Both the position numbers and the translations under genes were made by a program. From contig JAFUXA010000007.1 of the NCBI GenBank assembly GCA_017470985.1, positions 1 to 64,000 of the forward strand: DNA of 64,000 nt, given 5' to 3'. Positions within the stretch are counted from its first letter, which is position 1, and every line of letters begins with the position of its first letter. This stretch comes from Lachnospiraceae bacterium (GTDB lineage: Bacteria > Bacillota > Clostridia > Lachnospirales > Lachnospiraceae). This document shows positions 11,673-52,069 of the stretch, in pieces. Below the pieces are notes generated by a model that was given only the letters and a program-made list of their open reading frames with translations, was not told the origin of the DNA and did no database searches.

Positions 11673-11696
11673 TGCCATCAAAACTAGGAGAATATT

Positions 11697-17020: not shown

Positions 17021-17060
17021 AAATTAGGAGTATTTTTTGATAGTGTGATTGGAGAAATAT

Positions 17061-18983
17061 ATGAAGAAAAGATTATGTATGTTATTATTGGCAGCCGTTC
17101 TTGCTGTACCAAATCTTTTGGCGACTGGTAAAACAACTGCCTATGCTCAGGAAAATGATAAAACCGGATTGGAATCTATGGAGGAAACAGAACTATCCAG
17201 ACGACAGTTTAATGAATTCATAGATGATAATGAAAAGCCGGCGGCAGATGCATTGGAAAATGGTGCCCAGGTTGTTGAGTCAGGAACTCATAATGTGGTT
17301 ACATTTACCAAAGTGTCTCATGCAAATGCGGTAAATGGAGTGTATGCTTCATATACAACTGATAAATTGTATCAGACTATGACTAGTGCTCAGAAGAAAC
17401 TATATGATAGATTGTATACTACTTGTGAGAGCTATCTGATAAGTGATGCTGAGTTATATTATTCGGATTACGTAGGAGGATACTGTACTGCACCTGTACA
17501 ATATAGTGGTTTAAGCGATAGAGAAGCTGTGGACATATTATTATGCTTCGCATATTCTAATCCGCAATTCTACTATCTGGCTAATGGCTATGTAAGTGGT
17601 ACTAATTCTAGTGGTAAATATTTCATGTTGCAGTGCTATAGGGAATTTGCCAATGGTAGTACAAGAGCAACATATACTAACAGGGTATTTTCAGAAGCCA
17701 GAAAGATTATTGATGCAGCAAATGCTAAGTCTAATATATATGATAAACTGCGTACTGCTGAGGTGATGATTGGTCAGAAGGCAACATATGCAGAACTGGC
17801 AAATGGTTGGGATCAGAGCTGTTGTGGAATTCTTTTGAAAAACACTGGAGTGTGTGCTTCTTATTCGGAAACATATGAGTTGATCTGCAATGCGCTTGGC
17901 GTTCCGACTATTGCGGTGACAAGTATAGAGCATGAGTGGAATCAGGTATATATAAATGGTGCCTGGTATGTGGTGGATGCTACATGGGATGATAATAATA
18001 CTTATGGAACTGTGGATGCTGATTATTTCTTGAAGTCATACTCTACTATTAATAACTACTCAAGTGCTGATCGTACTAATCATACTATCGAAACGGATGT
18101 GTGGGCTACAGTGAGTGTGCCTGATTGTAGATATGATTTTGTTGAATCAAATAATACATCTTGGGAGCCGGCTCAAACTACATTATATGAAGCTGAGCAA
18201 TCATCTTTTACAGGTATGGCTTATGTAAATAATACATGGCGTTATCTGGTAAATGGTGTGGTTGATTATAACTATACTGGAATGGCAAATAACGAATATG
18301 GCTGGTGGTATTTTGTAAATGGCCAGTTGGATTGGTCATATACTGGTCTTGGTGTGAATCAATATGGTACATGGGTGTACGAGAATGGTAATTTGAATTT
18401 TGGTAGAAATGGCATGGTATGTGTGGATGGTACCTGGAGATATGCTGTAAATGGGCAGATAACCAATTATACCGGAATGGCCTGCAACGAATACGGTTGG
18501 TGGTATTATCAGAATGGTCTGTTGGATTGGACTTATACCGGAATGGCCTGCAATGACTATGGTTGGTGGTATTATCAGAACGGTAGATTAGATTGGAACT
18601 ATACCGGAGCTGCATCAAATCAATATGGAGTATGGTATTATATGAATGGCAATATCAACTGGGGCTATTCAGGTATGCTTGAAATCTATGGCAATTGGTG
18701 GTACGTGGTAAATGGTCAGTTTATAATGGATTATACCGGAATGGCCTGTAATGAATGGGGCTGGTGGTACTATACCAATGGTAATATTAATTGGAATTAT
18801 ACCGGAATGGCTTGCAACGACTATGGTTGGTGGTATTACCAAAATGGCAGATTAGATTGGAATTATACCGGATTTGGGTATAATCAGTATGGAACATGGC
18901 TGTATTACAACGGGCAGATTGCTTGGGGATATACAGGTGATTGGTATGGCCATTGGGTTGAGGGTGGCCAGGTTATGTCATAG
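17061..18983 (+). CDS. Secreted transglutaminase-like protein with wall-binding repeats
   Basis: 640 residues. A signal peptide (about 1-31, ending AYAQ) is followed by a helical region (about 95-230) and a transglutaminase-like cysteine domain. NTGVCASYSETYEL carries the nucleophile, EHEWNQVYINGAWY the histidine and VVDATWDD the aspartate, giving a complete Cys-His-Asp triad. From about residue 380 come some twelve 22-residue repeats of several types, including canonical units, and a GDWYGHWVEGG cap. Such enzymes may crosslink or cleave peptide bonds at the wall. TTG at 17049 is rejected; GGAG at 17051-17054 serves ATG 17061. Confidence 0.85.
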   Translation: MKKRLCMLLLAAVLAVPNLLATGKTTAYAQENDKTGLESMEETELSRRQFNEFIDDNEKPAADALENGAQVVESGTHNVVTFTKVSHANAVNGVYASYTTDKLYQTMTSAQKKLYDRLYTTCESYLISDAELYYSDYVGGYCTAPVQYSGLSDREAVDILLCFAYSNPQFYYLANGYVSGTNSSGKYFMLQCYREFANGSTRATYTNRVFSEARKIIDAANAKSNIYDKLRTAEVMIGQKATYAELANGWDQSCCGILLKNTGVCASYSETYELICNALGVPTIAVTSIEHEWNQVYINGAWYVVDATWDDNNTYGTVDADYFLKSYSTINNYSSADRTNHTIETDVWATVSVPDCRYDFVESNNTSWEPAQTTLYEAEQSSFTGMAYVNNTWRYLVNGVVDYNYTGMANNEYGWWYFVNGQLDWSYTGLGVNQYGTWVYENGNLNFGRNGMVCVDGTWRYAVNGQITNYTGMACNEYGWWYYQNGLLDWTYTGMACNDYGWWYYQNGRLDWNYTGAASNQYGVWYYMNGNINWGYSGMLEIYGNWWYVVNGQFIMDYTGMACNEWGWWYYTNGNINWNYTGMACNDYGWWYYQNGRLDWNYTGFGYNQYGTWLYYNGQIAWGYTGDWYGHWVEGGQVMS

Positions 18984-19196: not shown

Positions 19197-20603
19197 ATGT
19201 CTAAATGGAGGTCGTATATTTATATCATGACAAGAGATAATGCAAAATATTGGTATAGAGGTATCAGTAATATTATTATTGTACTTTTGCTGACATTTGA
19301 ATATTCATGCGCATGGCTGAAGGGAATCAATATATTGATGATTAGGCCATTTGAAAATAAAGGTAATCTTCTCGTATATATTATATATATAGTGTTGAGT
19401 ATATTGGTTATACGCACATTTGATGGATTTAATATGGGCGTAAATCGTATATCACATATTATCATTTCACAGTGGGTTTCGATGGTAATAGTCAATGGCA
19501 TTACTTTCTTAGAGAACTTCCTGATGGTAGGTTATTTGAATGAGCTGGGTCATATTCTTATGGCGTATGTGTGGCTGGTAGTGGTTCAGTCTATCACAAT
19601 TTTGGTGGTAACATATTGCCTTACTAAGCTTTATCGTATGGTATTCCCGCCACTTCGTATGCTGATGGTATATGGAGAGCATGCCAATAATTTGGCCAAG
19701 AAGATGAACAGTCGAGCTGATAAATATTTCATCGCAGATAGAATTGCGGACAGTGAATCCATAGAAACAATAGCTGCGACTATGGCAGATTATGATGCTG
19801 TTGTATTAAATGACATTGCAAGTGATAAGAAGAATCTGGTTTTGAAAGAATGTTATGACCAGAAGAAGAGAGTATATTTTACACCAAAGATTTCAGACAT
19901 TCTGGTAAAGAATGCTGATGAGTTGCATCTGTTTGATACACCGCTTTATCTCTGTAGAAATTTAGGACTTACGGCCAGTCAGAAATTTATCAAGAGAGCA
20001 GGAGATATATTTATATCTCTAATTGGAATAATAATTACTAGTCCGTTGATGCTTTTTGCCGCTATTGCTATCAAGGCATATGATGGTGGTCCTGCCTTGT
20101 ATAAGCAGAAGCGTGTGACGATTGATGATAGAGAATTCTATATCATGAAATTCAGAAGCATGATAGTAGATGCGGAAAAGGACGGTAAAGCAAGACTTGC
20201 CGGTGAAAATGATGATCGAATTACACCTATTGGTAAATTCATCAGAGCAACCAGAATAGATGAACTGCCACAGTTTTTCAATGTTTTAAAAGGTGATATG
20301 TCAATGGTGGGACCGCGTCCTGAAAGACCGGAGATTATAAAACAGTATGTGCAGGAAATTCCAGAGTTTGCCTATAGGACACGAGTGAAAGCTGGACTTA
20401 CAGGTTATGCTCAGGTTTATGGTAAATATAATACAACCAACTTGGATAAGTTGAAGCTGGATATGATATATGTTGAGCGTGGTTCGATTTTGTTGGATAT
20501 TAAACTGATTTTGCTTACATTCAAAGTTATTTTTATCAAAGATAGTACAGAAGGACTTGATGAAGGAGAGACAACAGCAACTACAGGTAATGGAAACAAA
20601 TAG
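19197..20603 (+). CDS. Polyprenyl-phosphate sugar-1-phosphate transferase
   Basis: 468-residue WbaP/exopolysaccharide-type initiating transferase. It moves a hexose-1-phosphate from a UDP-sugar to undecaprenyl phosphate at the inner membrane face, priming repeat-unit synthesis. There are about four N-terminal helices, a Rossmann-like middle region (about 155-245), a re-entrant helix (FISLIGIIITSPLMLF) and the catalytic C-terminal domain with KFRSMIVDAE (catalytic D-E pair), RATRIDELPQ, GDMSMVGPRPERP and VKAGLTGYAQV. The ATG 19197 has no ribosome site; another ATG at 19227 has GGAGG 16 bases upstream, so the start is uncertain by ten codons. It is the likely first committed enzyme of the glycan. 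Confidence 0.88.
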   Translation: MSKWRSYIYIMTRDNAKYWYRGISNIIIVLLLTFEYSCAWLKGINILMIRPFENKGNLLVYIIYIVLSILVIRTFDGFNMGVNRISHIIISQWVSMVIVNGITFLENFLMVGYLNELGHILMAYVWLVVVQSITILVVTYCLTKLYRMVFPPLRMLMVYGEHANNLAKKMNSRADKYFIADRIADSESIETIAATMADYDAVVLNDIASDKKNLVLKECYDQKKRVYFTPKISDILVKNADELHLFDTPLYLCRNLGLTASQKFIKRAGDIFISLIGIIITSPLMLFAAIAIKAYDGGPALYKQKRVTIDDREFYIMKFRSMIVDAEKDGKARLAGENDDRITPIGKFIRATRIDELPQFFNVLKGDMSMVGPRPERPEIIKQYVQEIPEFAYRTRVKAGLTGYAQVYGKYNTTNLDKLKLDMIYVERGSILLDIKLILLTFKVIFIKDSTEGLDEGETTATTGNGNK

Positions 20604-22399: not shown

Positions 22400-22444
22400 A
22401 TTATAGAAATGATGCAAGTGGAAAACGAGAGGAGAGAAGGAACT

Positions 22445-24754
22445 ATGAAAAAGTTGCGCAGTATTATGGTGGCATGTCTTGTGCCGGCATTAGCACTGGC
22501 GTGCGTACTGGCTTTTAATGTTACATCAGAGGCAAGCGAATCATCAGAAGGATATGACAAGATTGTATGTATTACAACAACAAATTCTGATGGAACAGAA
22601 GATGTAATTTATAAGGATATGCCAGATGATAAGGACAGAATTACAGTTTACGAAGCTAAGAAGATGGCAGGAGCTGCCAGTGGCAAAACTGTTACTGAGA
22701 TCAGATATGGTATCGATGTGTCTCATCATCAGAAGATTATAGATTGGGATGCAGTTAAAGCTGAGGGAATGCAATTTGCTTTTGTTCGTGTTGGTTATAG
22801 AAGTGAAACTGCTGAGGGCAAACTTGGTGAAGACGATTATTATAAGAGAAATCTATCTGAAGCTAATCGAGTAGGTGTTCCGGTTGGAGCATATATTTAT
22901 TCTCAGGCAATTAACCAGCAGGAAGCAAGAGAAGAAGCACAATTTCTTATGCAGCGTGTAAGAGATTACAAAATAAGCCTGCCTCTTGCTATTGATTATG
23001 AATCAAGTAATACAATGAAAAATGGAAAACCATATAAGGGTAGACTTCAGGTTTATTATGAGATAGGGGTAGTGAACAAAGAAATTGGAACAGGTAACTG
23101 TTGGGCTTTCTGTGATGAGATACAGAAGTCTGGCATGTATACTCCTATGGTTTATGCCAGCAAGTACTGGTTGAATAATTATATTGATGGCAAAGCCTTG
23201 GGAGAGCAATTTAGAATATGGGTTGCTCAATATAATTCGAAGAATACATACAATGAGCCATGGGATTTCTGGCAGTATAGTTCCGAGGGACAGATAGCTG
23301 GAATCAAAGGTAATGTAGACTGCAATGCATGGTATATCAAAGATGGAATTGTAGATTTCTCATATACTGGTGTTGCTGAAGTAGATACTGATGGCGATGG
23401 AGTCAAAGAGCTGAGATATATAAATGGCGGTGGCGTTGATAAAGAATATACCGGTGCAGCTTATAATGGCAATACACTTGTATATTTCAATAATGGAGTA
23501 GTAGATACTAATTATACTGGAATGGCTTGTACACCGGATGGAGCATGGTGGTACTTTAATAACGGCAGCAGAGATCCTTACTATACAGGAATGGCATCCA
23601 ATGCATATGGTTGGTGGTATTTCAATAATGGTATGGTTGATTTCAGCTATACAGGAATGGCTGTAAATGATTATGGCTGGTGGTATTACAAGAATGGAAC
23701 TATAGATTTCAAATATAATGGTTTAGGTCATAATTCATTAGGATTATGGGTTTATAGAAATGGAAATATCGACTTTAATCTCAATGGCATGGTTGAGGTT
23801 GGTGGTACATGGTACTATGCAGATGGTGGTAAGCTGACTGATTATACAGGAATGGCCCAAAATGATTATGGCTGGTGGTACTACAATAATGGAATTCTTG
23901 ATTTCAATTACAAAGGTATTGGAACGAACAAGTATGGTTCATGGGTTATGAAGAATGGAACGATTGACTACAGTTGTTCGGGAATGATTGAAATTGGTGG
24001 TTCTTGGAGATATGCATCAGAAGGCAAGTTAATCAACTATACTGGAATGGCCAACAACAGATTTGGTTGGTGGTACTATCGTGATGGATATCTTGATTTC
24101 GGATATACAGGAATGGCATCCAACGAATATGGCTGGTGGTATTACAGAAATGGTAATATCGATTTTGGTTATAACGGAGTAGGTCATAACGAGTATGGTG
24201 ACTGGTTGTACCAGAATGGTACAATTGCATGGAACCAAAGTGGAATGGTCTTTGTGTCTGGAGACTGGAAATATGCCCAAAATGGACAGCTGATTAAATA
24301 CACAGGAATGGCATCTAATGAATATGGCTGGTGGTATTACAGAAATGGTAATATCGACTTGGGTTATAACGGAGTAGGTCACAATGACTATGGTGACTGG
24401 TTGTATCAAAATGGTACAATTGCCTGGGGCTATAATGGAATGGTTTATACCAATGAAGGCTGGAGATATGCTGTAAATGGTGCAATAACAGCTTACACAG
24501 GAATGGCATGCAATGAATACGGATGGTGGTACTACCAAAACGGTCAAATTAATTTTGGTTACACCGGAATGGCATGCAACGAATATGGTTGGTGGTATTA
24601 TCGAAACGGGCAGTTGGATTGGAATTATACCGGCTTGGGAGTAAATGAATATGGTACCTGGTACTATCAAAATGGAAATATTGATTTTGGCTACAATGGT
24701 ACAGTAGATATAGATGGTAAGACTTATACTGTTGCTGGCGGTAGAGTGTTGTAG
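22445..24754 (+). CDS. Secreted GH25 lysozyme with long wall-binding-repeat tail
   Basis: 769 residues. A signal peptide (about 1-32) and linker precede a glycoside hydrolase 25 domain (about 80-300), a muramidase that cuts peptidoglycan. The catalytic acids are seen in YGIDVSHHQ and LAIDYESS; YIYSQAINQQEAREEA and FWQYSSEGQIAGIKGNVD are typical of GH25. The remaining 460 residues are about twenty repeat units of three kinds: a canonical unit with GWWYY, a weaker unit ending LWVYRNGNIDF or DWLYQNGTIAW, and a spacer unit such as GMVEVGGTWYYADGGK. They recur as a higher-order block. ATG 22445 follows GGAGAGAAGG; upstream ATGs are rejected. Confidence 0.92.
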   Translation: MKKLRSIMVACLVPALALACVLAFNVTSEASESSEGYDKIVCITTTNSDGTEDVIYKDMPDDKDRITVYEAKKMAGAASGKTVTEIRYGIDVSHHQKIIDWDAVKAEGMQFAFVRVGYRSETAEGKLGEDDYYKRNLSEANRVGVPVGAYIYSQAINQQEAREEAQFLMQRVRDYKISLPLAIDYESSNTMKNGKPYKGRLQVYYEIGVVNKEIGTGNCWAFCDEIQKSGMYTPMVYASKYWLNNYIDGKALGEQFRIWVAQYNSKNTYNEPWDFWQYSSEGQIAGIKGNVDCNAWYIKDGIVDFSYTGVAEVDTDGDGVKELRYINGGGVDKEYTGAAYNGNTLVYFNNGVVDTNYTGMACTPDGAWWYFNNGSRDPYYTGMASNAYGWWYFNNGMVDFSYTGMAVNDYGWWYYKNGTIDFKYNGLGHNSLGLWVYRNGNIDFNLNGMVEVGGTWYYADGGKLTDYTGMAQNDYGWWYYNNGILDFNYKGIGTNKYGSWVMKNGTIDYSCSGMIEIGGSWRYASEGKLINYTGMANNRFGWWYYRDGYLDFGYTGMASNEYGWWYYRNGNIDFGYNGVGHNEYGDWLYQNGTIAWNQSGMVFVSGDWKYAQNGQLIKYTGMASNEYGWWYYRNGNIDLGYNGVGHNDYGDWLYQNGTIAWGYNGMVYTNEGWRYAVNGAITAYTGMACNEYGWWYYQNGQINFGYTGMACNEYGWWYYRNGQLDWNYTGLGVNEYGTWYYQNGNIDFGYNGTVDIDGKTYTVAGGRVL
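23340..24750 (+). repeat. Higher-order repeat region in GH25 gene
   Basis: About twenty 60-66-bp units arranged in blocks of spacer unit, one to three canonical GWWYY units, and a closing unit with single W. Two blocks around 24110-24440 are almost identical to each other in protein sequence. Confidence 0.85.
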
Positions 24755-24795: not shown

Positions 24796-25875
24796 ATGAT
24801 AGAGATAGCAAAGAGCATCATAGTACTTGTGATTATGATGAGCCTGTTTTATATATGGGGCCGAGGAACAACTGAATTATGTGGAATCAAGACAAGAAAT
24901 GTCGCTCTCATGGAACTGCTTGGATTATGTCTGTTCTTTGTGGTGCAACAAATAGTTGTTCAACCTCTGGTCTTTACTCACAATAGTTTGCATGTGACTG
25001 CTATAGTGGATGCTATTGTAGTTATTGTAATTAGCGGCATTTTGGTTTATGTACATACAAGCCGCAGGTCAGTTGCTGGCAAGATATTTTACAAATTAAA
25101 TTCTGTACAGTTATTATTTGCTGCTGTTGGCATACTGGCTACAATCTGCATGATGATTGTGGCATATAACATGATGTATAGAGGGTATGATACAAGTTAT
25201 TACATCGGCATAATGAATTCCTTTGTATATGATGGAAAGTTTTGGACTAGAGATGGATTTAGAGGACTTTGGCCAACTGATTTTATTCCTCTTCACTATG
25301 CTATTTCCTGCTATTATCCAGTGTGGTCCATAGTGGCATATATTACTGGAATTCCAGTGAGAATATTTGCAATGTTTTCTGTGAAGGGGTTACTGATTGT
25401 ATTATTTTCCTGCGTATGCTTTTGTTATGGATATGAATTGCTAGGTGATCATATTAAAGAAGGAGAGGACAACAGATGGCTCAATAGATTTAATCTGGGC
25501 TTTGCTTTCATAAGTATAACAGCATTGGTATCGCTGTTTTTGAGTGAGGAACATTCTCTTGTTGGAATGATGTACTTAAGAGGTTATGAATCCAAAGGCT
25601 ATTGCGCAGCTGTTGTATGTCCATTGTGCTTATTGATTCTGATAAAGATATGCAAGAATCCAACGGATGATTCATTATGGAAGATGCTTGCAGTAGTAGC
25701 CTGGTCTAGTATGCCCATTGCAATGTCATCTATGGCAATCATTCCATTAGCCATTGGAATTGTGGGCGTTATATTAATGGTAACAGAGAAGCGATTCTGG
25801 CCGATTTTTATCAGATGCCTGATTTGCGTGATACCTAATATTGCAATGATGGCATGGTACATGTTGGGAAAATAG
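24796..25875 (+). CDS. DUF6077-like membrane protein, N-terminal part (probable frameshift)
   Basis: 359 residues with about nine membrane helices. The DTSYYIGIMNSFVYDGKFW loop near residue 135 and the RGYESKGYCAAVVCPLC region recall the DUF6077-type polytopic proteins of Lachnospiraceae polysaccharide loci, which are about 650 residues long and GT-C-like. The frame stops at TAG 25873-25875 right after an AAAA run (25869-25872), and the next frame continues with further helices. One extra A would join both parts into a protein of about 645 residues. The family call is tentative. Confidence 0.6.
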   Translation: MIEIAKSIIVLVIMMSLFYIWGRGTTELCGIKTRNVALMELLGLCLFFVVQQIVVQPLVFTHNSLHVTAIVDAIVVIVISGILVYVHTSRRSVAGKIFYKLNSVQLLFAAVGILATICMMIVAYNMMYRGYDTSYYIGIMNSFVYDGKFWTRDGFRGLWPTDFIPLHYAISCYYPVWSIVAYITGIPVRIFAMFSVKGLLIVLFSCVCFCYGYELLGDHIKEGEDNRWLNRFNLGFAFISITALVSLFLSEEHSLVGMMYLRGYESKGYCAAVVCPLCLLILIKICKNPTDDSLWKMLAVVAWSSMPIAMSSMAIIPLAIGIVGVILMVTEKRFWPIFIRCLICVIPNIAMMAWYMLGK

Positions 25876-25889
25876 TCGGAGGAATATAT

Positions 25890-26735
25890 ATGTCATTTAT
25901 TACAAATTCAGCTATATATAATATGATAACCGGCTATTATTTTCACTCTCATGTGTGGATGATATTGACCTTGTTATCGATTCTATATTTGATAATCAAA
26001 GCTGAAAAAGCGGTTAAGACCAAGATTATCCTGGCAATAGTTCTTACAATACTGACTGTGGGAAATGATTTGAGTTATATTATCTTGGTTAGATTTTTCG
26101 CAGCGGCGTCATACTATAGATTTTATTGGATGGTGCCATATATATTAATAGTATCCTATACCTTGTGCAGAATCGGTCTGGATATATATTATAGTGAGAG
26201 ACTGACTCGTAAGAGAAAATGCATCATAGGCGCGGCTCTTGTGCTTATATTTATTATCTCTATCGTGTCTACAGGCTCTCTGTATCTGCAGAAATTAAGA
26301 AGTGACAGACCACAAAATGCTTATATGGTAGATGTGGATACCTTAGAATTGCAGGATATAATGAACTCGGAAAGAGAAGCTGGGAATTGTGAGGCTATGA
26401 TGATAATGGCTACACCATCCACTCTGGCGTTGCAGTATCAGACTGTGGACGCTGGTTCATATATGGCGGTGGATAGAACAACTCTTCTTGATATTAGAGC
26501 TATGTCTCCAGATCCTGCCACTTTAGAATGGTACGATGCAGACAGAGTATATCTCATGGGATTGTGTGAAGATGGGATACAATATGATGCTAATCTTATA
26601 ACAAAGGCAGTGCAGGAGCTGGCCGTGGGGTATATAGTTGTTCACAAGGCATATGAATTGGATAATTATATGTCTCAGTTTAATTATAATTATGTAGGTG
26701 AGACCACAAATTATAAGGTCTACAGAACATATTAG
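25890..26735 (+). CDS. DUF6077-like membrane protein, C-terminal part
   Basis: 281 residues with about five helices, then a soluble C-terminal domain of about 120 residues (LELQDIMNSEREAGNCEAMM, VYRTY end), the usual tail of polytopic sugar-transfer proteins. It looks like the second half of the preceding gene shifted by one base. It does, however, have its own excellent ribosome site: GGAGG at 25878-25882, seven bases before ATG 25890. The two halves may therefore still be made as separate chains. An upstream in-frame ATG at 25854 overlaps the first part. Confidence 0.6.
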   Translation: MSFITNSAIYNMITGYYFHSHVWMILTLLSILYLIIKAEKAVKTKIILAIVLTILTVGNDLSYIILVRFFAAASYYRFYWMVPYILIVSYTLCRIGLDIYYSERLTRKRKCIIGAALVLIFIISIVSTGSLYLQKLRSDRPQNAYMVDVDTLELQDIMNSEREAGNCEAMMIMATPSTLALQYQTVDAGSYMAVDRTTLLDIRAMSPDPATLEWYDADRVYLMGLCEDGIQYDANLITKAVQELAVGYIVVHKAYELDNYMSQFNYNYVGETTNYKVYRTY

Positions 26736-26771: not shown

Positions 26772-27623
26772 ATGAATAATCAGAAGAAGAGCGTAGCTTT
26801 TATAGAGATTATTAGAGAATTAATAGAAAACAGGAAACTAATCAAGACTTTGTCGAGAAATGATTTCAAGGCCAAGTTTGCAGGATCTTTTTTTGGAATC
26901 CTGTGGGCCTTTGTTCAGCCTATAGTAACCGTGCTTGTATACTGGTTTGTATTTGACAAAGCTATTAATGTAGGTGGCCAGGTAACCAAGGCTGGTCTTA
27001 CTGCTCCTTACGTAGTATGGCTCGTGGCAGGTATGGTGCCATGGTTTTACTTTTCTGAAGTGGTAAATCTGGGCAGTAATACATTGATTGAATATGATTA
27101 TCTGGTGAAGAAGGTTGTGTTCAAAATAAGTACTCTTCCTATAGTGAAGATTATATCAAGCTTGTTTGTTCATATATTCTTCATAGGCTTCATGGTGGTG
27201 CTTTATATATTCTATGGTTATGCTCCAACTCTATATATGCTACAGGTATTTTATTATTCATTTGCCATGATAATACTGTGCATAGGAATTATATATGCTA
27301 CAAGTGCCATTGCAGTTTTCTTTAGAGATTTAACTCAGATTATAAGCATATTTATGCAGGTACTTATGTGGATGACTCCTATAATGTGGAACATGCAGGG
27401 CATGGTAGATCAGGGTAGAATCAGTAAGCCAATAGAGGTTTTGCTGAAAATGAATCCCATGTATTATGTCGTTTCAGGATATAGAGATGCTATGTTAAAT
27501 AATACCTGGTTCTGGGAACGTGGAACTATGAATTTATATTTCTGGGGCGTGACAATAGTGCTGTTTATACTTGGCACAACAATATTTAAGAAATTACAGC
27601 CACATTTTGCGGATGTATTATAG
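26772..27623 (+). CDS. wzm: ABC-2 type polysaccharide export permease (Wzm/TagG-like)
   Basis: 283-residue permease with six membrane helices. Together with the ATPase encoded 12 bases downstream it exports a lipid-linked glycan across the membrane. RNDFKAKFAGSFFGILWAFVQP near the N-terminus is the amphipathic gate-helix region of this family; GMVPWFYFSEV and FMQVLMWMTPIMW are typical later motifs. The length is normal. Pairing with an ATPase bearing a C-terminal extension points to the Wzm type rather than an unmodified teichoic-acid exporter. Confidence 0.9.
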   Translation: MNNQKKSVAFIEIIRELIENRKLIKTLSRNDFKAKFAGSFFGILWAFVQPIVTVLVYWFVFDKAINVGGQVTKAGLTAPYVVWLVAGMVPWFYFSEVVNLGSNTLIEYDYLVKKVVFKISTLPIVKIISSLFVHIFFIGFMVVLYIFYGYAPTLYMLQVFYYSFAMIILCIGIIYATSAIAVFFRDLTQIISIFMQVLMWMTPIMWNMQGMVDQGRISKPIEVLLKMNPMYYVVSGYRDAMLNNTWFWERGTMNLYFWGVTIVLFILGTTIFKKLQPHFADVL

Positions 27624-27635
27624 AGAGGAATATTC

Positions 27636-28979
27636 ATGAGTGAATATGCTATTAGAGTAAAGAATGTAAGCAAAGTTTATAAATTGTTTGAGGGTAACAA
27701 GGATAGAGTTCTTGACGCTCTTAGTTTATCGAAGAAGAAGAGATACAAAGAGCATTATGCTTTGAACAATATGAACTTCGATATAGCCAGAGGCGAGACT
27801 GTTGGTATTATTGGAACCAATGGTGCCGGTAAATCTACTATCCTGAAAATCATAACTGGTGTTTTGAGCCCTACAGATGGTGAGGTTGAAATCAATGGTA
27901 GAATATCAGCTCTTCTTGAACTTGGTGCTGGATTTAATATGGAATATACCGGTATTGAAAATATTTACCTCAACGGTACCATGATTGGTTTTACCAAAGA
28001 AGAGATTGATGAGAGACTGGATGATATATTGGCTTTTGCAGATATTGGCGATTTCGTCTACCAACCGGTGAAGACATATTCCAGTGGTATGTTTGTGCGA
28101 CTTGCTTTTGCAGTTGCCATCAATATTGATCCGGAGATATTGATAGTTGATGAGGCCTTATCTGTGGGAGATGTATTCTTTCAGGCAAAATGCTATAAGA
28201 AATTCGAGGACTTCAAGAAAATGGGTAAGACCATATTATTTGTCAGTCACGATTTGACAAGTATTGCCAGATATTGCGACAAGGTTATCCTGCTTGACCA
28301 CGGTCGTAAGCTTGATGAAGGAACACCGAAGGAAATGGTGGGCCTGTACAAGAGAATTCTGGCTGGTAAGAATCCATCTGCCCGAGGAGTTATGGTATCT
28401 GATGAGTCGGGAGTTGTTTCATCTGATTCTGTGGGAAATGATAGTACAATTGAAGCTCAGAATCAGAGTGGAGATTCGGAAAGAACTGCTAATAATGAAA
28501 TTTTGTGGAAAACCAACTATGATATCAATCCGAATGTGGATGAGTATGGTAACGGCGAAGCAGAAATAATTGATTTCGCAGTTATGGATGATTTGGGAGA
28601 CTGCTCCAATAATATTGTAAAAGGTTCTAGCTTTACCATTAAGTCCAAGGTCCGTTTTAATAACGATGTAGTTGATCCGATTTTTACATATACCATCAAG
28701 AACATTCACGGAACCGCAATTACTGGTACCAATACAATGTTCGAGAGAGTAAGTGTGGGTACTGCCAAGGCAGGTGAGACCTATGTGGCTAGTTTTGAGC
28801 AGGAGATGAACCTCCAGGGTGGGGAGTATTTACTTTCCATTAGTTGCACAGGTTATAAGGAAGGCGAATTGATAGTATATCATCGACTTTATGATGTGAT
28901 AAATATTACTGTTATTTCAGATAAAAATACTGTGGGATTCTATGATATGAATTCCGTGACTTCTATTGAGAAGGTATAA
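27636..28979 (+). CDS. wzt: Polysaccharide ABC exporter ATPase with C-terminal glycan-binding domain (Wzt-like)
   Basis: 447 residues. The ATPase domain (1 to about 245) has Walker A GTNGAGKST, the signature region VKTYSSGMFVRLAF, Walker B EILIVDEALSVGD and the switch histidine in FVSHDL. After a Ser/Asp-rich linker (about 250-290), a beta-sandwich domain (about 290-440; FTIKSKVRFNNDV, GGEYLLSISCTGY) matches the carbohydrate-binding domain of Wzt, which in O-antigen exporters recognises a modified chain end. Its presence, and the methyltransferase-kinase gene next door, argue for export gated by a terminal modification. That link is inference from the E. coli O9a system. Confidence 0.9.
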   Translation: MSEYAIRVKNVSKVYKLFEGNKDRVLDALSLSKKKRYKEHYALNNMNFDIARGETVGIIGTNGAGKSTILKIITGVLSPTDGEVEINGRISALLELGAGFNMEYTGIENIYLNGTMIGFTKEEIDERLDDILAFADIGDFVYQPVKTYSSGMFVRLAFAVAINIDPEILIVDEALSVGDVFFQAKCYKKFEDFKKMGKTILFVSHDLTSIARYCDKVILLDHGRKLDEGTPKEMVGLYKRILAGKNPSARGVMVSDESGVVSSDSVGNDSTIEAQNQSGDSERTANNEILWKTNYDINPNVDEYGNGEAEIIDFAVMDDLGDCSNNIVKGSSFTIKSKVRFNNDVVDPIFTYTIKNIHGTAITGTNTMFERVSVGTAKAGETYVASFEQEMNLQGGEYLLSISCTGYKEGELIVYHRLYDVINITVISDKNTVGFYDMNSVTSIEKV

Positions 28980-29016
28980 ATGGGAGTGTATCTAATTGAT
29001 ACAGGAAGAAACTGAT

Positions 29017-30885
29017 ATGAGAGTTGATTCGACAAATATATTAGAAGATGTACAACAACATAATGAGATAGAATTACAACAAATTGCACGAGAATCCGGG
29101 GATTGGGAGAGATTATTTCACCTGTCGGATAATCGTGCCAATGTAGTTCAGTGGCTTGAGGTAGCACCTGAAACTTGCGCATTGGAAATTGGAGCGCAGG
29201 CAGGTGCTATTAGTGCTGTTATTGCACCGAAATATGATAGATATGTGGCATTGGACATTGCTGAGGATATGAAACGTGCCTTTGAAGCGAGAAAATCATG
29301 CTCCGGTATTGAGTATGTATTGGACAATATATGTAATTATGCAGTCGGCCATCAGGGAGAATTTGATGATATCTATATGATAGGATGTCTGGCTAATGCG
29401 CTGGAGTATATCTCTTATGGTTCTGCTGTAAATTATAATCTGACAGATTCTGAAGCTTGTGCAGTAAATGACAATTTAACAGATGCTCAGGATTGCGCAA
29501 TAAAGCTTATTGAAACTGCTAAATCTATGATGAAACCAAATGGCCGATTGATAATTGCATCAGAAAATAAGCTTGGTATGAAATATTGGGCTGGCTGTCA
29601 GGAAGAGAATAATGGTGGCTATTATATCAATATTGAGAATTATCCAAACGGTGAGGTGAGACGCACATTTTCTAAAAAAGAATTAGCATCCATTCTAGAA
29701 AAGAGTGACTTGAGAAATTTAGATTGGTATTATCCTTATCCGGACTTGTATTTTGCCAAGAGTATATATTCCGATGAATATTTGCCGCAGCCGGGAGAAT
29801 TGCTTGATAATATCAACAATTATAATAGAGATAGATATCTCTTCTTTGATGAAGGCAAAGCTTATTCTTCCATTATCAAAGAGGGATTGTATCCGGAATT
29901 TGCTAACAGTTTCCTGGTTATAGCCCATAATAATGTTGGCACAGATGCCTCAGTAAGTGATAATGACAAGACTGTGTATGTGAAATATTCCAAAGAGAGA
30001 GATAGAAGATTTGCCATTAGAACGGATATAAAGAGGCGTCGTGAAACTGCAAATCATAATGAGATAGAAGCCTTGAATTGTGACAATTGTTATGTGGTGA
30101 AAAAGCCGTGCTATCCGCAAGGCGTTGAGCATATTGAGCATGCATATAAATGCTTTGAAAATATGTTTAACGAGTATGAAGCTGCCGGCATGTCGTTGAA
30201 TAATTGTAAATTGTCAGTAGATGAGCTGCGCTTTGAATATGTGGAGGGAGAGAATTTACAGACCAGAATTGATTCTCTTATAAGAAGAGGAGATGAACAG
30301 GCGGCAGAAGAGCTGTTTGATGAATATATCAATAGATGTTTCATGTCTCTTCCTACAGTTGATTTTGTTACAAGTGAAGCATTTGAAGAAGTATATGGCA
30401 AGGTTGATCTGGGCACTGATGAAGCAGCATATCTCCAGTCAGATGTGGATATGATATGTTCGAATATATTTATCCAGGGAGATAAATGGCAGGTTATTGA
30501 CTACGAGTGGTCTATGGACTTTGCTGTTCCAAGAAATTATATTCTCTACAGGGCGTTGTATCTGGCGCATCATCAGATTGCTAGATGTGAATTCCTTGAA
30601 CTGGACAGACTTATGAAGAAATATGGTATTTCTGAAGATAAGCAAAATATTTTCCAGAGTATGGAAAATCATTTTCAGGAATATGTCAGAGGTCAGTCAC
30701 TTTCTGATTCAGAGGTTCATAAGCGGATTGGCAAGAAGATATTTACCATAAATGAGTTAAACGAAATGAATTATGAAAATGCTCGTCTGGCTAATGATAA
30801 TGCAAATATGAGCAAGAGAATTGAGCAATTAATGCGAGAGAGGAGCTTGATAAAAGCTGCTTTGAGTAAGCTTAGAAGATTATGA
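29017..30885 (+). CDS. WbdD-like methyltransferase-kinase with C-terminal coiled coil
   Basis: 622 residues. An N-terminal SAM methyltransferase (about 30-220) shows motif I ALEIGAQAGAIS and a following VALDI acid. The middle part (about 290-530) has kinase-like features: a strand with lysine (VYVKYSKERDRRFAIR), a helix, then NIFIQGDKWQVIDYEW resembling the metal/ATP loop of aminoglycoside/LPS-kinase folds. The last 70 residues are a heptad-like helix (MNYENARLANDNANMSKRI) ending in a basic helix. That is the layout of WbdD, which caps and measures O9a chains, and it adjoins wzm-wzt here as there. TTG 28996 with GGGAG upstream is an alternative start. It overlaps the next gene by four bases. 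Confidence 0.7.
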   Translation: MRVDSTNILEDVQQHNEIELQQIARESGDWERLFHLSDNRANVVQWLEVAPETCALEIGAQAGAISAVIAPKYDRYVALDIAEDMKRAFEARKSCSGIEYVLDNICNYAVGHQGEFDDIYMIGCLANALEYISYGSAVNYNLTDSEACAVNDNLTDAQDCAIKLIETAKSMMKPNGRLIIASENKLGMKYWAGCQEENNGGYYINIENYPNGEVRRTFSKKELASILEKSDLRNLDWYYPYPDLYFAKSIYSDEYLPQPGELLDNINNYNRDRYLFFDEGKAYSSIIKEGLYPEFANSFLVIAHNNVGTDASVSDNDKTVYVKYSKERDRRFAIRTDIKRRRETANHNEIEALNCDNCYVVKKPCYPQGVEHIEHAYKCFENMFNEYEAAGMSLNNCKLSVDELRFEYVEGENLQTRIDSLIRRGDEQAAEELFDEYINRCFMSLPTVDFVTSEAFEEVYGKVDLGTDEAAYLQSDVDMICSNIFIQGDKWQVIDYEWSMDFAVPRNYILYRALYLAHHQIARCEFLELDRLMKKYGISEDKQNIFQSMENHFQEYVRGQSLSDSEVHKRIGKKIFTINELNEMNYENARLANDNANMSKRIEQLMRERSLIKAALSKLRRL

Positions 30886-32897
30886 ATATTAAGAAGATAA
30901 AGAACAAGATTAAAAACAAGATAAGTTCAAATGAGATTACATATGTCCTTGATGAAGTCTTTGAGGACTATGATGAAGTAGATATTCGAGGATGGGCATA
31001 TGTTTATCTGGGGGATAATGTCTATGATATTCCCAGATATGAGTTGATGAATATTGACGGTGATCCGGTGAAATGCACCTATGAGACTAGCAGCCGCAAA
31101 GATGTAAATCTAATGATATGCGGTGGAACGCAGCCTGATAATAAATTTGGATTTATGATTCGCGTGAAGAATTCTGATATTGAATCCAGATATTCAAATA
31201 TGACATTGAAATTAATCTATGGCAACAATATTCAAGAGATTGAAATTGATATTGTAGCCGCTGCTGAATCTTATAGAAGATATAAGAGCATTGAGGATAT
31301 GGAGCGCATGGCTGATAAGCGTCAGGCTCAGGATGATGAATTCTACAAGGCGGTTAGAGGTCGTAAATACTACAACAAGGTTCTAGCCAATAGATTAAAT
31401 GGAACTGATGTGCCATATATGGCATGGCGCAGATATCAGGAGATTTCAGATGAGGAGAGAATTCGACAGAGCCAGCAGAAGTTTGATTACATGCCATGTA
31501 TCTCAATATTGGTTCCGGCTTATCGTACACCTAGAGATTTTCTGGTTCAGATGATTGAATCAGTTGTGAATCAGACTTATGCCAATTGGCAGCTTTGCAT
31601 CGCAGATGCCAGTCTTGATGATTCAATCGTGGATATATTGGAGGATTATCACAAGAGAGATTCCAGGGTTGTATATAAGCTTCTGGAAGAGAACCTGGGT
31701 ATTTCTGACAATACCAATGCGGCTCTTGATTTGGCTACAGGAGATTTTATTGCTCTGTTGGATCATGATGATTTGTTGGATGAGGATGCCTTGTATGAGG
31801 TGGTTAAGTGCATAAATGAGGAGCAGGTGGATGTGGTTTATACTGACGAGGACAAGGTGAATATGACCTTGGATTATTATTTTGAACCACATTATAAGCC
31901 TGATTATAATCGTGAACTTCTTATGAGCTGCAATTATATAACACATTTCTTTGTAGTGAAGAGAGATATTGTAGATAGAGTGGGACTCCTTGATAACCGT
32001 TTTGATGGATCTCAGGATTTTGAATTTATTCTAAGATGTACAAATCAGGTTGAAAAGGTAGGCCATGTGAGAAAGGTAGTATATCATTGGAGATGTCATC
32101 CGGATTCTACAGCAATGAATCCTGAGACCAAGATGTACTGTTATACTGCCGGAGTTGATGGAATTCAAAATACTCTGGATGCAGCCGGAATCAAGGGCGA
32201 AGCTTATAGACAGGATTCTTTTGGATGCTATGGAGTCAGATATCCATTAAATGGAAAGCCGAAGATTCTTACTATAGTTGTAAATGGGGATAAATATTTA
32301 ACAGATTATGAAAATGAGACGGTTGAATATTTGTCAAATATAAATGACGAGACTATCTGGTCAGAGATAATGAAGGCTGAGAAAATTCATGATGCTGACT
32401 ATGTGTTTATAGTTCAGGGCAATGGCGAGATGACAGGAATGGAAGATCTCATTGCCAATATAGCCAGGGATGATATAGGTATGGTTGGAGCCAAGGTCAC
32501 TTCTTCAGATGGATTGATTGTGGAAGCTGGCAGAGTTGTATCAAGAAATGCTGGATGCCAGAATGTATGTCTTGGAATGAAGACAGATGATCTGAGATAT
32601 GACATGAGAACAATTCTACAGCAGGAAGTTATGGCATATGGATTGAATGGTATCATGATACCAATTGAAGCACTGAGGGATTATGTAGAGAATAAATCTC
32701 GTGAGGAGACTTTGAATCAGTATATTGAAAATACTGGTGAGAAAATAGTATATGTGCCAATAGCTGAGTATAGAATGAATGATGATTTAAATCAGGTTAT
32801 GAAAAATTATATAGATATAGCTGAGCCTGTTGGAGAAGACAGATATTATAGCAGTGAATACAGCTTGAGTGGAGATCCATATACATTTTCATGGTAA
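30882..32897 (+). CDS. Family 2 glycosyltransferase with N-terminal accessory domain
   Basis: 671 residues. Residues 15-130 form a beta-rich accessory domain (VDIRGWAYVYLGDN, KFGFMIRVKN). A GT-A domain (about 205-450) follows with ISILVPAYRTPRDFL, NWQLCIADASLDD, LLDHDDLLDEDAL and YTDEDKVNM, then a second diverged GT2-like half. It is a paralogue of the first GT2 of the locus (5993-7879): both share THFF, FDGSQD, YHWRCH and STAMNPE. Because it follows the wzm-wzt-capping cluster with a four-base overlap, it is likely to build the exported chain. Confidence 0.87.
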   Translation: MNIKKIKNKIKNKISSNEITYVLDEVFEDYDEVDIRGWAYVYLGDNVYDIPRYELMNIDGDPVKCTYETSSRKDVNLMICGGTQPDNKFGFMIRVKNSDIESRYSNMTLKLIYGNNIQEIEIDIVAAAESYRRYKSIEDMERMADKRQAQDDEFYKAVRGRKYYNKVLANRLNGTDVPYMAWRRYQEISDEERIRQSQQKFDYMPCISILVPAYRTPRDFLVQMIESVVNQTYANWQLCIADASLDDSIVDILEDYHKRDSRVVYKLLEENLGISDNTNAALDLATGDFIALLDHDDLLDEDALYEVVKCINEEQVDVVYTDEDKVNMTLDYYFEPHYKPDYNRELLMSCNYITHFFVVKRDIVDRVGLLDNRFDGSQDFEFILRCTNQVEKVGHVRKVVYHWRCHPDSTAMNPETKMYCYTAGVDGIQNTLDAAGIKGEAYRQDSFGCYGVRYPLNGKPKILTIVVNGDKYLTDYENETVEYLSNINDETIWSEIMKAEKIHDADYVFIVQGNGEMTGMEDLIANIARDDIGMVGAKVTSSDGLIVEAGRVVSRNAGCQNVCLGMKTDDLRYDMRTILQQEVMAYGLNGIMIPIEALRDYVENKSREETLNQYIENTGEKIVYVPIAEYRMNDDLNQVMKNYIDIAEPVGEDRYYSSEYSLSGDPYTFSW

Positions 32898-45178: not shown

Positions 45179-45256
45179 TCGACATCGTGATAGTTTAATG
45201 ATAGAATAAACAAGGTTTTTAGTTTACAACCTGTATTTTTGGAGGAACAAATAGAT

Positions 45257-45841
45257 ATGGCAAAATATGGCAAGATTGAAGTTACTGAAGATTGTAACGG
45301 TATTAAAGGTTTAAAGGTAATCGAGCCTTCAGTATTCGGTGATGAGCGCGGTTACTTTATGGAGACATATAATTATAATGATTTCAAGGCAGCAGGCATT
45401 GACTGCGAATTTGTACAGGACAATCAGTCTGCTTCCAAGAAGGGCGTGCTTCGTGGATTGCATTTCCAGCTTAATTACCCACAGGATAAGCTTGTGCGCG
45501 TAATCAAAGGTGAAGTCTATGATGTGGCAGTTGATTTGCGTGAAGGTTCTGAGACATTTGGTAAATGGTTTGGAATTAAGCTTACAGAGGAGAACAAGAA
45601 GCAGTTCTTCATTCCAAAGAATTTCGCACATGGATTCCTTGTGCTTTCTGATTATGCAGAGTTTTGCTACAAGGTTACTGATTTCTATCATCCAAATGAT
45701 GAGGGTGGATTAATGTACAACGATCCTGATATTGGAGTTGAGTGGCCACTTCCGGAAGGAATGACAGAGGATGATTTGATTTTGTCTGACAAGGACAAGG
45801 TGAACTGGAGTTATAAAGAATATTTAGCTGAACATCGTTAG
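45257..45841 (+). CDS. rmlC: dTDP-4-dehydrorhamnose 3,5-epimerase
   Basis: 194-residue cupin-fold epimerase of dTDP-L-rhamnose synthesis. FGDERGYFMETYN, the GVLRGLHFQLNYPQDKLVRV segment with the catalytic histidine, GEVYDVAVDLR and FAHGFLVLSDYAEFCYKVTD are classic. An in-frame ATG at 45239 overlaps the GGAGG site (45241-45245), so ATG 45257 is used. RmlA is at 9.7 kb; RmlB and RmlD are not in the window, so rhamnose synthesis must be completed from elsewhere if it occurs. Confidence 0.95.
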   Translation: MAKYGKIEVTEDCNGIKGLKVIEPSVFGDERGYFMETYNYNDFKAAGIDCEFVQDNQSASKKGVLRGLHFQLNYPQDKLVRVIKGEVYDVAVDLREGSETFGKWFGIKLTEENKKQFFIPKNFAHGFLVLSDYAEFCYKVTDFYHPNDEGGLMYNDPDIGVEWPLPEGMTEDDLILSDKDKVNWSYKEYLAEHR

Positions 45842-50518: not shown

Positions 50519-52069
50519 ATGGCAAAGAAAGAGATTTATAATATCGAATTGCCTTCAGAAAGAGGAAGTAGAACAAGTAGTTCTGGCGGAATGAGAACCA
50601 GAGCAAATGGTGGCACAACAAGAAATAGTGGCGCTTCTAGAAGCGGTGTCGGTACAAGAACTGGTGCTTCATCAACTAGAGGTGGCTCATCCCGAGGCGG
50701 TTATGCTTCTGGAGCCAGAAACGGCGCTAGTAAGAAGAAAATATCGACTGGCACTTCAAACAGAAGCGGCTATGGCTCGGGGAGCAGAACCGGATCTGCA
50801 TCATCCAGAAATGGAGCATCTACAAGAACTGGATCTGCATCATCAAGAAGAGGATATGATTCCAGACGAGATTCATCAGAATACAGAAGCAGCACACGAG
50901 GCGCCTCACGAACGACTTCCTCTCGTAACAGACATATAGATGAGTACGAGGGGGCTGAGAACTACGAAAGACCTCGTAGAAGTTCTCGTCAGATTGCCAA
51001 GGCCAGAAAGAAGCGTAAGCGCAGGAAGATATTATTTATAATCGAAGCAATTGCTCTTATCTTATTGCTTCTATTCCTGTTTGCCTGGTTGAAACTGGGA
51101 CTTATCAATTGGGATGACCTTAAAAACCTGCGGACCAACAAGTTGGATGATGAGACTGCAGCTTTGCTTGATGGTTATACAACAGTTGCCTTCTTTGGTG
51201 TGGATAACCGTTCCGCAGGACATTATGAAGGTGGAAACAGTGATAGTATTATGATTTGTACTATCAACAACGACACCAAGGAAGTGCGAGTGGCATCTGT
51301 TTACAGAGATACTGTTCTCGATGTAGACGGCAAGGGAACTTATAAGAAATGTAATTATGCATACAACCATGGTGGCCCTGAGGAAGCAATCAATATGCTG
51401 AATCTCAACATGGATTTGGATATACAGAAATATGTGGCGGTAGACTTCTTCGCTCTTGCTGAAGTGATTGATGCCTTTGGTGGAATTGATTTGGATATTA
51501 CTGAGGATGAGGCATATCATATGAATTCCGGTGGAGATATGTGCTACATTTGGGAGACTGCAACCAGTGCCGGTGTGGAAGTGCCGCCTGATGTAACTCC
51601 TGGAACAGGTGTCCATGTAAATGGAGTTCAGGCCGTAGCTTACGCCCGAATCAGAAAGACCTCCGGTGGAGATTTCGCTAGAGCTCAGAGACAGAGAATA
51701 GTTCTGGAAAAGGTTGTAGAAAAGGCTCAGCATGCCAACATATTTACATTGAACAAAGTGGCGGATGCAGCTTTTGATGATGTGGGAACCAACTTTACTT
51801 TGAATCAGATTCTAAGCCTGGCCAAGTATGTGAAGGATTATCAGCTGGTGGATACAGCAGGCTTCCCATTTTACAAGAACTCAGAGCACAGATTGGAGGG
51901 AACATCAGTTGTATGCCCATGTACACTTGAGTCAAATGTGCGTCAGCTTCACGCTTTCTTGTACAATAATCCGGAAGTGAAATTGTCTGATGTTGTTGTA
52001 AGTACATCCAAGGACATTGAAAATCTCATGGGATTAGGCGAGGAAGATGCACTGGATTACGGTTATTAA
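50519..52069 (+). CDS. LCP-family glycan ligase with long Ser/Gly/Arg-rich cytoplasmic tail
   Basis: 516 residues. The LytR-CpsA-Psr domain (about 220-500), outside the membrane, transfers undecaprenyl-phosphate-linked glycans onto peptidoglycan. TTVAFFGVDNRS, GNSDSIMICTINNDTKEV, VASVYRDTVLDVDG, FFALAEVIDAFGGIDLDI and VNGVQAVAYARIRK are the usual motifs, including the phosphate-binding arginines. One helix (residues about 174-198) follows a basic KKRKRRK stretch. Residues 15-150 are a low-complexity, positively charged Ser/Gly/Arg/Thr sequence with repeats such as GSASSR, unlike the short tails of most LCP proteins. Confidence 0.92.
   Translation: MAKKEIYNIELPSERGSRTSSSGGMRTRANGGTTRNSGASRSGVGTRTGASSTRGGSSRGGYASGARNGASKKKISTGTSNRSGYGSGSRTGSASSRNGASTRTGSASSRRGYDSRRDSSEYRSSTRGASRTTSSRNRHIDEYEGAENYERPRRSSRQIAKARKKRKRRKILFIIEAIALILLLLFLFAWLKLGLINWDDLKNLRTNKLDDETAALLDGYTTVAFFGVDNRSAGHYEGGNSDSIMICTINNDTKEVRVASVYRDTVLDVDGKGTYKKCNYAYNHGGPEEAINMLNLNMDLDIQKYVAVDFFALAEVIDAFGGIDLDITEDEAYHMNSGGDMCYIWETATSAGVEVPPDVTPGTGVHVNGVQAVAYARIRKTSGGDFARAQRQRIVLEKVVEKAQHANIFTLNKVADAAFDDVGTNFTLNQILSLAKYVKDYQLVDTAGFPFYKNSEHRLEGTSVVCPCTLESNVRQLHAFLYNNPEVKLSDVVVSTSKDIENLMGLGEEDALDYGY

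What the first reader, a model, noticed from the sequence alone, without database searches (positions are those of the whole stretch)
26772..30885. WbdD-like capping and chain-measuring system in a Gram-positive
wzm, a wzt with C-terminal carbohydrate domain, and a methyltransferase-kinase protein ending in a coiled coil follow one another. In E. coli O9a the same set (Wzm, Wzt, WbdD) ends the chain by phosphorylation and methylation, sets the length by a coiled-coil ruler, and exports only capped chains. Such a system appears little described in Firmicutes.
Basis: inference. Interest (0 to 1): 0.7.

Follow-up and report, generated by a model that had tools for sequence, protein, structure and literature searches.

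The report
Sugar-chain capping kinase, gut Firmicute
A gut bacterium's wall-sugar gene cluster encodes a chain-capping enzyme whose phosphate-adding half looks intact while its methyl-adding half looks worn out, and the same wear seems to have happened repeatedly in its relatives.

Summary
The genes are as described: Wzm, a Wzt with a carbohydrate-binding C-terminus, and a 622-residue methyltransferase-like/kinase protein ending in a helix. "Chain-terminating capper beside a CBM-bearing ABC exporter" is well supported by context. "WbdD-like" is only partly right: the kinase has an aminoglycoside-phosphotransferase-type fold and no detectable WbdD-kinase relation. The nearest characterised enzyme is the Klebsiella pneumoniae O7 terminator (ORF6-O7); a homologous Pseudomonas protein carries all six published SAM-site residues at identical numbers. 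The family matches in 131 of 250 same-family genomes; 63 of 75 readable loci have a Wzt_C gene directly upstream.
New observation: four of six SAM-site positions are changed or missing in the window's copy. Such erosion recurs (20 of 121 sequences, partly hand-picked; 13 changes on a kinase-only tree, three forced by well-supported branches), while kinase catalytic residues are kept in 121 of 121. I infer capping by phosphorylation, with the methyltransferase kept as a scaffold. That matches chemistry reported in a Firmicute: the cyclophospho-rhamnose cap of a C. difficile S-layer glycan, for which I saw no enzyme assigned. The "ruler" claim is weak: about 44 residues. No activity was tested.

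The parts
26772..27623 (+). Wzm-type permease of the polysaccharide ABC exporter (283 aa)
   Evidence: PF01061 E 4.8e-17
27636..28979 (+). Wzt ATPase with C-terminal carbohydrate-binding domain (447 aa; Wzt_C at 28536-28949)
   Evidence: PF00005 E 5.2e-24, PF14524 E 5.3e-42; Wzt_C once in the assembly
29017..30885 (+). O7-type chain-terminator homologue, 622 aa: methyltransferase-like + kinase + short helix
   Evidence: AlphaFold2 pLDDT 89, pTM 0.88; family alignments
29017..29925 (+). Methyltransferase-like domain (residues 1-303); SAM-site positions: first Tyr absent, F34 for Tyr, G59 kept, Q61 for Gly, D80 kept, N127 for Tyr
   Evidence: family boundary at about 303/317 shown by split genes
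29965..30741 (+). Kinase domain (residues 317-575), APH-like fold; K362, D478, N483, D495
   Evidence: model pLDDT 92.6; (4fex_C E 1.4e-5); residues kept in 121 of 121 rows
30748..30879 (+). C-terminal helix, residues 578-621, possible short coiled coil
   Evidence: secondary structure; heptad test (972 of 20,000 shuffles as good)
30882..32897 (+). GT2 glycosyltransferase (671 aa), start overlaps the terminator's stop; candidate chain-extending partner
   Evidence: PF00535 E 5.6e-26; 6 of 80 relatives carry a GT2 match in one chain with both terminator domains
19197..20603 (+). Initiating sugar-phosphate transferase (Bac_transf)
   Evidence: PF02397 E 3e-63
45239..45841 (+). dTDP-4-dehydrorhamnose 3,5-epimerase family: rhamnose supply (inferred)
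   Evidence: PF00908 E 1.7e-71
50519..52069 (+). LytR-CpsA-Psr family protein: likely attaches the glycan to peptidoglycan (inferred)
   Evidence: PF03816 E 5.8e-35,

Best explanation
The protein at 29017-30885 is a homologue of the O7-type (ORF6-O7) polysaccharide terminator. It phosphorylates the non-reducing end of a lipid-linked, probably rhamnose-containing wall glycan; the phosphate stops elongation and is the export tag read by the C-terminal domain of Wzt. In this copy the methyltransferase half has probably lost methylation and is kept, mainly its second half (residues 172-303), as a structural or acceptor-binding partner of the kinase; the short helix tethers the terminator to itself or to the adjacent GT2 rather than acting as a long ruler. 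Shown: gene order, predicted folds, residue patterns, homology, fusions in relatives. Inferred: phosphorylation of the chain end, loss of methylation, export gating, the polymer's identity.
For: Kinase fold with K362/D478/N483/D495 invariant in 121 of 121 rows, eroded or not; in 12 more distant loci the D, N and D are kept in 12 of 12 and K in the 11 that cover it. APH-type fold, as published for ORF6-O7 (PMC11231755 section 11, part 1 of 2). The P. asturiensis homologue has Y28, Y66, G91, G93, E112 and Y158 at exactly the published ORF6-O7 numbers and its catalytic Asp at 443 against 441, plus a CBM match and two GT2 modules, after Wzm and Wzt_C. Wzt_C gene directly upstream in 63 of 75 loci with readable upstream DNA, one Wzt fusion, five more with Wzt_C within 3 kb; 6 of 80 carry GT2 in the same chain. 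SAM-site erosion: 7 of 110 in the first set, 20 of 121 distinct rows after adding 20 loci chosen for late-starting matches, 13 changes on a quick kinase-only tree, at least 3 forced by starred branches; window clade support 98/91 on the careful tree. In the 20 eroded rows the second half keeps 147 of 160 conserved letters against 42 of 120 SAM-site letters. Standalone methyltransferase genes show a broken site in 11 of 18 chosen loci, all 11 still between a Wzt_C gene and the kinase gene. All three genomes held for the genus have a copy (the other two 29 and 24% identical to the window's), both of the others with a truncated methyltransferase half.
Against: No activity or glycan was measured. 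Q61 alone does not prove loss of SAM binding: WbdD has Ala at that place (DLGCAQG), and F for Y is conservative. The window's N-half is full length (130 of 131 positions), unlike the strongly eroded relatives. Eroded loci were partly picked for late-starting matches, so 20 of 121 is not a prevalence. Eroded rows were defined by the SAM site, and the second-half positions were chosen after seeing the alignment. The kinase residues are not universal outside the Lachnospiraceae set: the C. braakii homologue aligns Glu at the second Asp and Arg at the Lys, and P. asturiensis aligns His at the Lys (the Lys column is uncertain there). Six of 75 loci have no Wzt_C within 3 kb upstream; in three of these (L044, L045, L076) less than 3 kb is held, and L033 has one about 8 kb upstream.
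Confidence: 0.6

Rival explanations
1. A fully bifunctional terminator: the methyltransferase still works with a divergent SAM site and the cap is methyl phosphate, as in E. coli O9a and K. pneumoniae O7.
For: Domain complete in the model; D80, G59 and G63 kept; WbdD itself departs from GxGxG; 103 of 110 sequences in the first set keep the SAM site.
Against: 4 of 6 positions changed or missing in the window; its closest kin on the kinase tree (L033, L052, L057, L076) all have broken sites; both other genomes of the genus have lost most of the N-half.
Confidence: 0.22
2. The kinase decorates internal residues or a lipid-linked primer rather than terminating the chain, and Wzt_C reads something else.
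For: I saw no end-group data for any Lachnospiraceae glycan; six of 75 loci have no Wzt_C within 3 kb upstream.
Against: Position between wzt and glycosyltransferase genes, the Wzt fusion (L099) and GT fusions; the ORF6-O7 D441A mutant makes chain that is not exported (PMC11231755, passages).
Confidence: 0.13
3. The WbdD-type ruler reading: the coiled coil sets chain length. (Not exclusive of the other readings.)
For: Heptad pattern in residues 577-621; extended coiled coils are described as a marker of terminators (PMC11231755, passages).
Against: About 44 residues (about 6.6 nm if helical) against a C-terminal region 460-708 with predicted coiled coils in WbdD (PMC3482155, passages); only marginally beyond shuffles; 45 of 119 kinase-bearing ORFs carry the CBM-like domain and no coiled-coil call by a crude scan that over-calls.
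Confidence: 0.15

Closest known systems
ORF6-O7 terminator of Klebsiella pneumoniae O7 (PMC11231755)
   Same: N-terminal methyltransferase, unannotated APH/AmiN-like kinase, Wzm/Wzt export; a homologous Pseudomonas protein reproduces six of six published SAM-site residue numbers. Family offset from the first Gly to the catalytic Asp: commonest value 352 (14 of 90 sequences; median 373.5, range 344-431) against 350.
   Different: The window's copy lacks the CBM-like domain, has GT2 as a separate gene, a short helix, a broken SAM-site pattern, and sits in a wall-glycan cluster of a Gram-positive. The ORF6-O7 sequence itself was not available to compare.
WbdD of E. coli O9a, here taken from strain HS (L032, P0001); PDB 4azs, 4azt, 4ax8
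   Same: Methyltransferase-kinase-coiled coil order beside wzm/wzt; whole-chain Foldseek alignment; D351/N356/D369 of the paper correspond by eye to D478/N483/D495.
   Different: No detectable sequence relation of the kinase (hhalign probability 0.3%; BLASTP E 1.7 for the whole pair); hhalign finds only the SAM motif region (probability 53%).
WsaE of Geobacillus stearothermophilus (PMC2943079, passages)
   Same: Firmicute; Wzm, Wzt, then a methyltransferase fused to glycosyltransferases, methyl cap predicted to be read by Wzt.
   Different: No kinase described; methyl cap directly on rhamnose. Not compared by sequence.
C. difficile Ox247 S-layer glycan (PMC6254364, abstract and passages)
   Same: Firmicute, ABC-exported glycan ending in 2,3-cyclophosphoryl-rhamnose.
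   Different: No capping enzyme named in the passages seen; locus sequence not compared here.
Lcin_0519 kinase-methyltransferase family (PMC9758233 section 9, read)
   Same: Kinase, methyltransferase, frequent coiled coil, Wzt/Wzm/GT neighbours.
   Different: The groups named in the paper are Proteobacteria; 96% of members keep the methyltransferase domain according to the paper; relation to our family not tested.

Membership tests
O7-type (ORF6-O7) terminators | Kinase domain of APH type with catalytic Asp | tested here: met
   kinase profile against the P. asturiensis homologue: domain E 3.2e-9 in a two-sequence search, hhalign 94.6%; the C. braakii homologue only weakly (hhalign 27%)
O7-type (ORF6-O7) terminators | SAM-site residues equivalent to Y28, Y66, G91, G93, E112, Y158 | tested here: not met
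   Window keeps 2 of 6 (G59, D80); 103 of 110 sequences of the family keep the site
O7-type (ORF6-O7) terminators | Homology over the methyltransferase domain to a protein with the published residue numbering | tested here: met
   Window against P. asturiensis 27% over 293 aligned positions, E 9.5e-24 in a two-sequence search
O7-type (ORF6-O7) terminators | CBM-like domain after the kinase | tested here: not met
   Absent in the window by alignment and model; present in 81 of 119 kinase-bearing relatives
O7-type (ORF6-O7) terminators | Adjacent Wzm and Wzt with C-terminal domain | tested here: met
   in relatives
O7-type (ORF6-O7) terminators | ATP- and SAM-dependent addition of methyl phosphate to chain end | not testable with these tools
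   Needs enzyme assay
WbdD family | Sequence homology to the WbdD kinase | tested here: not met
   hhalign probability 0.3%; BLASTP E 1.7 for the whole pair
WbdD family | Methyltransferase-kinase arrangement in one chain | tested here: met
   Foldseek 4azt/4azs/4ax8, 594-619 columns; low TM-score 0.24
WbdD family | Extended coiled coil followed by a membrane-associated region | tested here: not met
   Single helix 578-621 then end of chain; no separate test for a membrane helix was made
WbdD family | Recruitment of the polymerase | not testable with these tools
   Only indirect: GT2 fusions in 6 of 80 relatives

The most novel reading that the evidence does not exclude
Across Lachnospiraceae, terminators have repeatedly turned into phosphate-only cappers. 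The retained methyltransferase remnant has been recruited to a new step, such as closing the terminal phosphate into a 2,3-cyclic phosphate, which would supply the missing enzyme class for cyclophospho-rhamnose caps like that of C. difficile Ox247.
Probability: 0.1. Interest if true: 0.85.

Novelty: new variant of a known kind. Interest (0 to 1): 0.6.

Why it matters
Terminators decide the length and export of ABC-exported glycans, and the prototypes cited here with a kinase are Gram-negative O antigens. Finding O7-type homologues in about half of the sampled genera of a large gut family (130 of 249), with kinase residues kept in 121 of 121 and the methyltransferase repeatedly decayed, suggests that phosphate is the essential part of the cap and predicts unmethylated or cyclic phosphate ends on wall glycans of common gut bacteria. 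It also gives a candidate enzyme family for a cap chemistry seen in a Firmicute without a named enzyme.

Tried and rejected
Rejected: the WbdD family as the home of this protein; methylation as the default reading for this copy; a chance or artefact reading of the ORF (model pLDDT 89, 131 of 250 genomes). Led nowhere: viral contigs (two pattern matches, no relative); PDB sequence searches for the kinase (nothing below E 0.067); a weak own-genome hit on contig C31 (E 4.6e-4), where no ORF in the fetched stretch matched the kinase or methyltransferase profile; a crude coiled-coil scan that also flags enzyme domains and so cannot count rulers. Of 12 loci fetched from other families of the phylum and two further same-family genomes, my kinase profile first re-found the domain in 8 (L172, L174-L180); the other four (L169-L171, L173) had been dropped by HMMER's speed filters and score sequence E 4e-14 to 4e-17 without them. 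I could not obtain the K. pneumoniae O7 ORF6 sequence or the C. difficile Ox247 locus, so those links rest on published residue numbers and chemistry.

Dropped rows: the kinase trees left out identical kinase sequences (8 pairs); L009 is identical to L052 in the kinase. The SAM-site tally counts L047 and L063, cut at the contig start, as intact although their first Tyr is not held. L147-L164, L169-L180 and L196 are in no tree. The script ended in an error after building; one search repeated it.
Full report
What is there. Three genes in a row on the + strand encode a Wzm permease (26772-27623), a Wzt ATPase with a Wzt_C domain (27636-28979) and a 622-residue protein (29017-30885), followed with a four-base overlap by a GT2 glycosyltransferase. 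The surroundings hold an initiating sugar transferase (19197), a nucleotidyl transferase (9690), a dTDP-dehydrorhamnose epimerase family protein (45239), many GT2 genes, two acyltransferases, choline-binding-repeat proteins and a LytR-CpsA-Psr protein (50519). The product is therefore probably a rhamnose-containing glycan linked to peptidoglycan (inference).

Fold. With 51 rows AlphaFold2 gives pLDDT 89 and pTM 0.88. Foldseek against PDB lists methyltransferases first, plus three WbdD entries that alone in the 50 rows shown align over both domains (594-619 columns, E about 6e-8, TM-score 0.24). The kinase domain modelled alone (pLDDT 92.6) matches aminoglycoside phosphotransferase APH(3')-Ia best (E 1.4e-5, TM 0.50); macrolide phosphotransferases, methylthioribose kinases and LicA are also among the 50 rows shown, WbdD and AmiN are not. 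Sequence profiles of the kinase find nothing significant in PDB.

Family. With the whole protein as query, 131 of 250 same-family genomes (own included, about one per genus) match (such a match may rest on the methyltransferase alone); with the kinase alone, 27 of the 60 same-family genomes of another draw. With the kinase profile, 17 of 291 genomes of the class match (9 of them in the same family) and 7 of 299 of the phylum (4 in the same family). The split sites place the domain border at window residues 303-317. Upstream DNA could be read in 75 loci: Wzt_C gene immediately upstream in 63, fused in 1, within 3 kb in 5, not within 3 kb in 6, of which three hold less than 3 kb and one has it about 8 kb away. 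This gene order and the two kinds of fusion are the main evidence that the protein works between chain synthesis and Wzt.

Which known terminator. WbdD of E. coli HS (L032) shows no kinase relation (hhalign 0.3%) and only the SAM motif region in common. A paper on K. pneumoniae O7 (PMC11231755; section 11 part 1 of 2 read, passages) describes ORF6-O7: methyltransferase, an unannotated AmiN-like kinase with catalytic D441, an Ig-like CBM, a coiled coil and two GT2 modules; it puts methyl phosphate on rhamnose, and D441A gave no exported chain. Searching 72,556 plasmid records with a family member found three: a P. asturiensis protein of 1457 aa (E 1e-37, 26% over 83% of the query), a C. braakii protein (E 4e-28) and a weak Deinococcus match (E 3e-4). 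The first two lie right after Wzm and a Wzt with Wzt_C. The Pseudomonas protein has Y28, Y66, G91, G93, E112 and Y158 exactly as published for ORF6-O7 and its Asp at 443; the C. braakii protein is shifted by a residue and has Glu where the second kinase Asp should be. The Lachnospiraceae family has the same pattern at commonest offsets -60, -25, 0, +2, +21, +69 and, more variably, +352 (14 of 90; range 344-431), against -63, -25, 0, +2, +21, +67, +350 for ORF6-O7. I therefore place the family with ORF6-O7, with the caveat that the ORF6-O7 sequence itself was not on hand.

The worn methyltransferase. Of 110 sequences, 103 keep the SAM-site pattern; the window has a missing Tyr (its N-terminus is about 22 residues shorter than L082's, 15 if the TTG start is used), F34 for Tyr, Q61 for Gly and N127 for Tyr. 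On a tree of 101 kinase domains, which does not use the methyltransferase columns, the window groups with L033, L052, L057 and L076, all with broken sites (support 98/91); L022 stands apart. Twenty further loci, chosen because their match to the window began late or was partial, raised the total to 20 eroded of 121 distinct kinase rows; six of those twenty were intact. The quick tree needs 13 changes, of which well-supported branches force 3; several of the added rows have long branches and unsure places. Eleven of the 20 hold fewer than 100 of 131 aligned N-half positions. Their second half keeps 147 of 160 conserved letters, against 42 of 120 at the SAM site, by which they were defined. Separate methyltransferase genes show the same: 11 of 18 chosen loci have a broken site, and in all 11 the gene still lies between a Wzt_C gene and the kinase gene. 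K362, D478, N483, D495, E497, R328, T336 and R512 are kept in 121 of 121, and D478, N483 and D495 in 12 of 12 further loci. The two other genomes held for the window's genus carry divergent copies with truncated methyltransferase halves. Because loci were picked, these are not frequencies; and the scan patterns favour DYEW and KYWAGC motifs.

Mechanism proposed. The kinase phosphorylates the last sugar; this stops growth and marks the chain for Wzt_C. The WbdD paper states that phosphorylation alone suffices to terminate (PMC3482155, passages; section 6 read), so loss of methylation is tolerable in principle. The retained second half probably supports the kinase or holds the acceptor. A phosphate cap without methyl has been reported in a Firmicute: the C. 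difficile Ox247 S-layer glycan ends in 2,3-cyclophosphoryl-rhamnose and is thought to be exported by a two-component ABC transporter (PMC6254364, abstract and passages). Geobacillus WsaE is a Firmicute precedent for a methyl cap (PMC2943079, passages).

The ruler. The tail is one helix of about 44 residues with a fair heptad pattern (9 of 13 a/d positions, 972 of 20,000 shuffles as good). In 119 kinase-bearing ORFs of relatives, 81 carry the CBM-like domain after the kinase, as ORF6-O7 does. A chain-length ruler is not excluded but is not shown.

What is not in print, as far as searched: and 82 of the open-licence library returned no account that I saw of methyltransferase-kinase terminators in Lachnospiraceae or of repeated methyltransferase loss; apart from the six papers opened (PMC3482155, PMC2943079, PMC11231755, PMC6254364, PMC9758233, PMC6379404) I saw only listings, and subscription papers are not held.

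Noticed in passing
window 29422-29496 (residues 136-160 of the protein): An insertion of about 23 residues holding a near-repeat (NLTDxxxCA twice) sits in a methyltransferase loop after the lost SAM-site Tyr; model confidence is lowest there apart from the last two residues.
   Followed up: partly
L099:8501-12010: Apparent natural fusion of Wzt (ABC + Wzt_C) with methyltransferase and kinase in one 1170-aa open frame; near relatives L061, L068 and L071 have separate genes. A MAG contig; an assembly error is not excluded.
   Followed up: partly
window 10683-12860, 17049-18983, 22409-24754: Several choline-binding-repeat proteins, one with a GH25 lysozyme domain and one with a transglutaminase core, lie among the glycan genes; they may bind the glycan made here.
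   Followed up: no
G139 (L127) and G825 (L196), same genus as the window: All three genomes held for the genus carry a terminator in this family, but the other two are only 29 and 24% identical to the window's: the locus looks serotype-like and often exchanged.
   Followed up: partly
L085:11290-13812: A second, partial kinase-family ORF with GT2 similarity downstream of a complete terminator in the same locus.
   Followed up: no
L181 (C. braakii plasmid pF217-3): Rhamnose genes, Wzm/Wzt_C and an O7-type terminator homologue on a plasmid typed as conjugative, with transposase genes nearby; its kinase has Glu at the second Asp position.
   Followed up: partly
window 24796-26735: A DUF6077 ORF followed by a second ORF directly upstream of wzm; matches to both lie next to each other in L034, L035, L040, L052, L107 and L143.
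   Followed up: no
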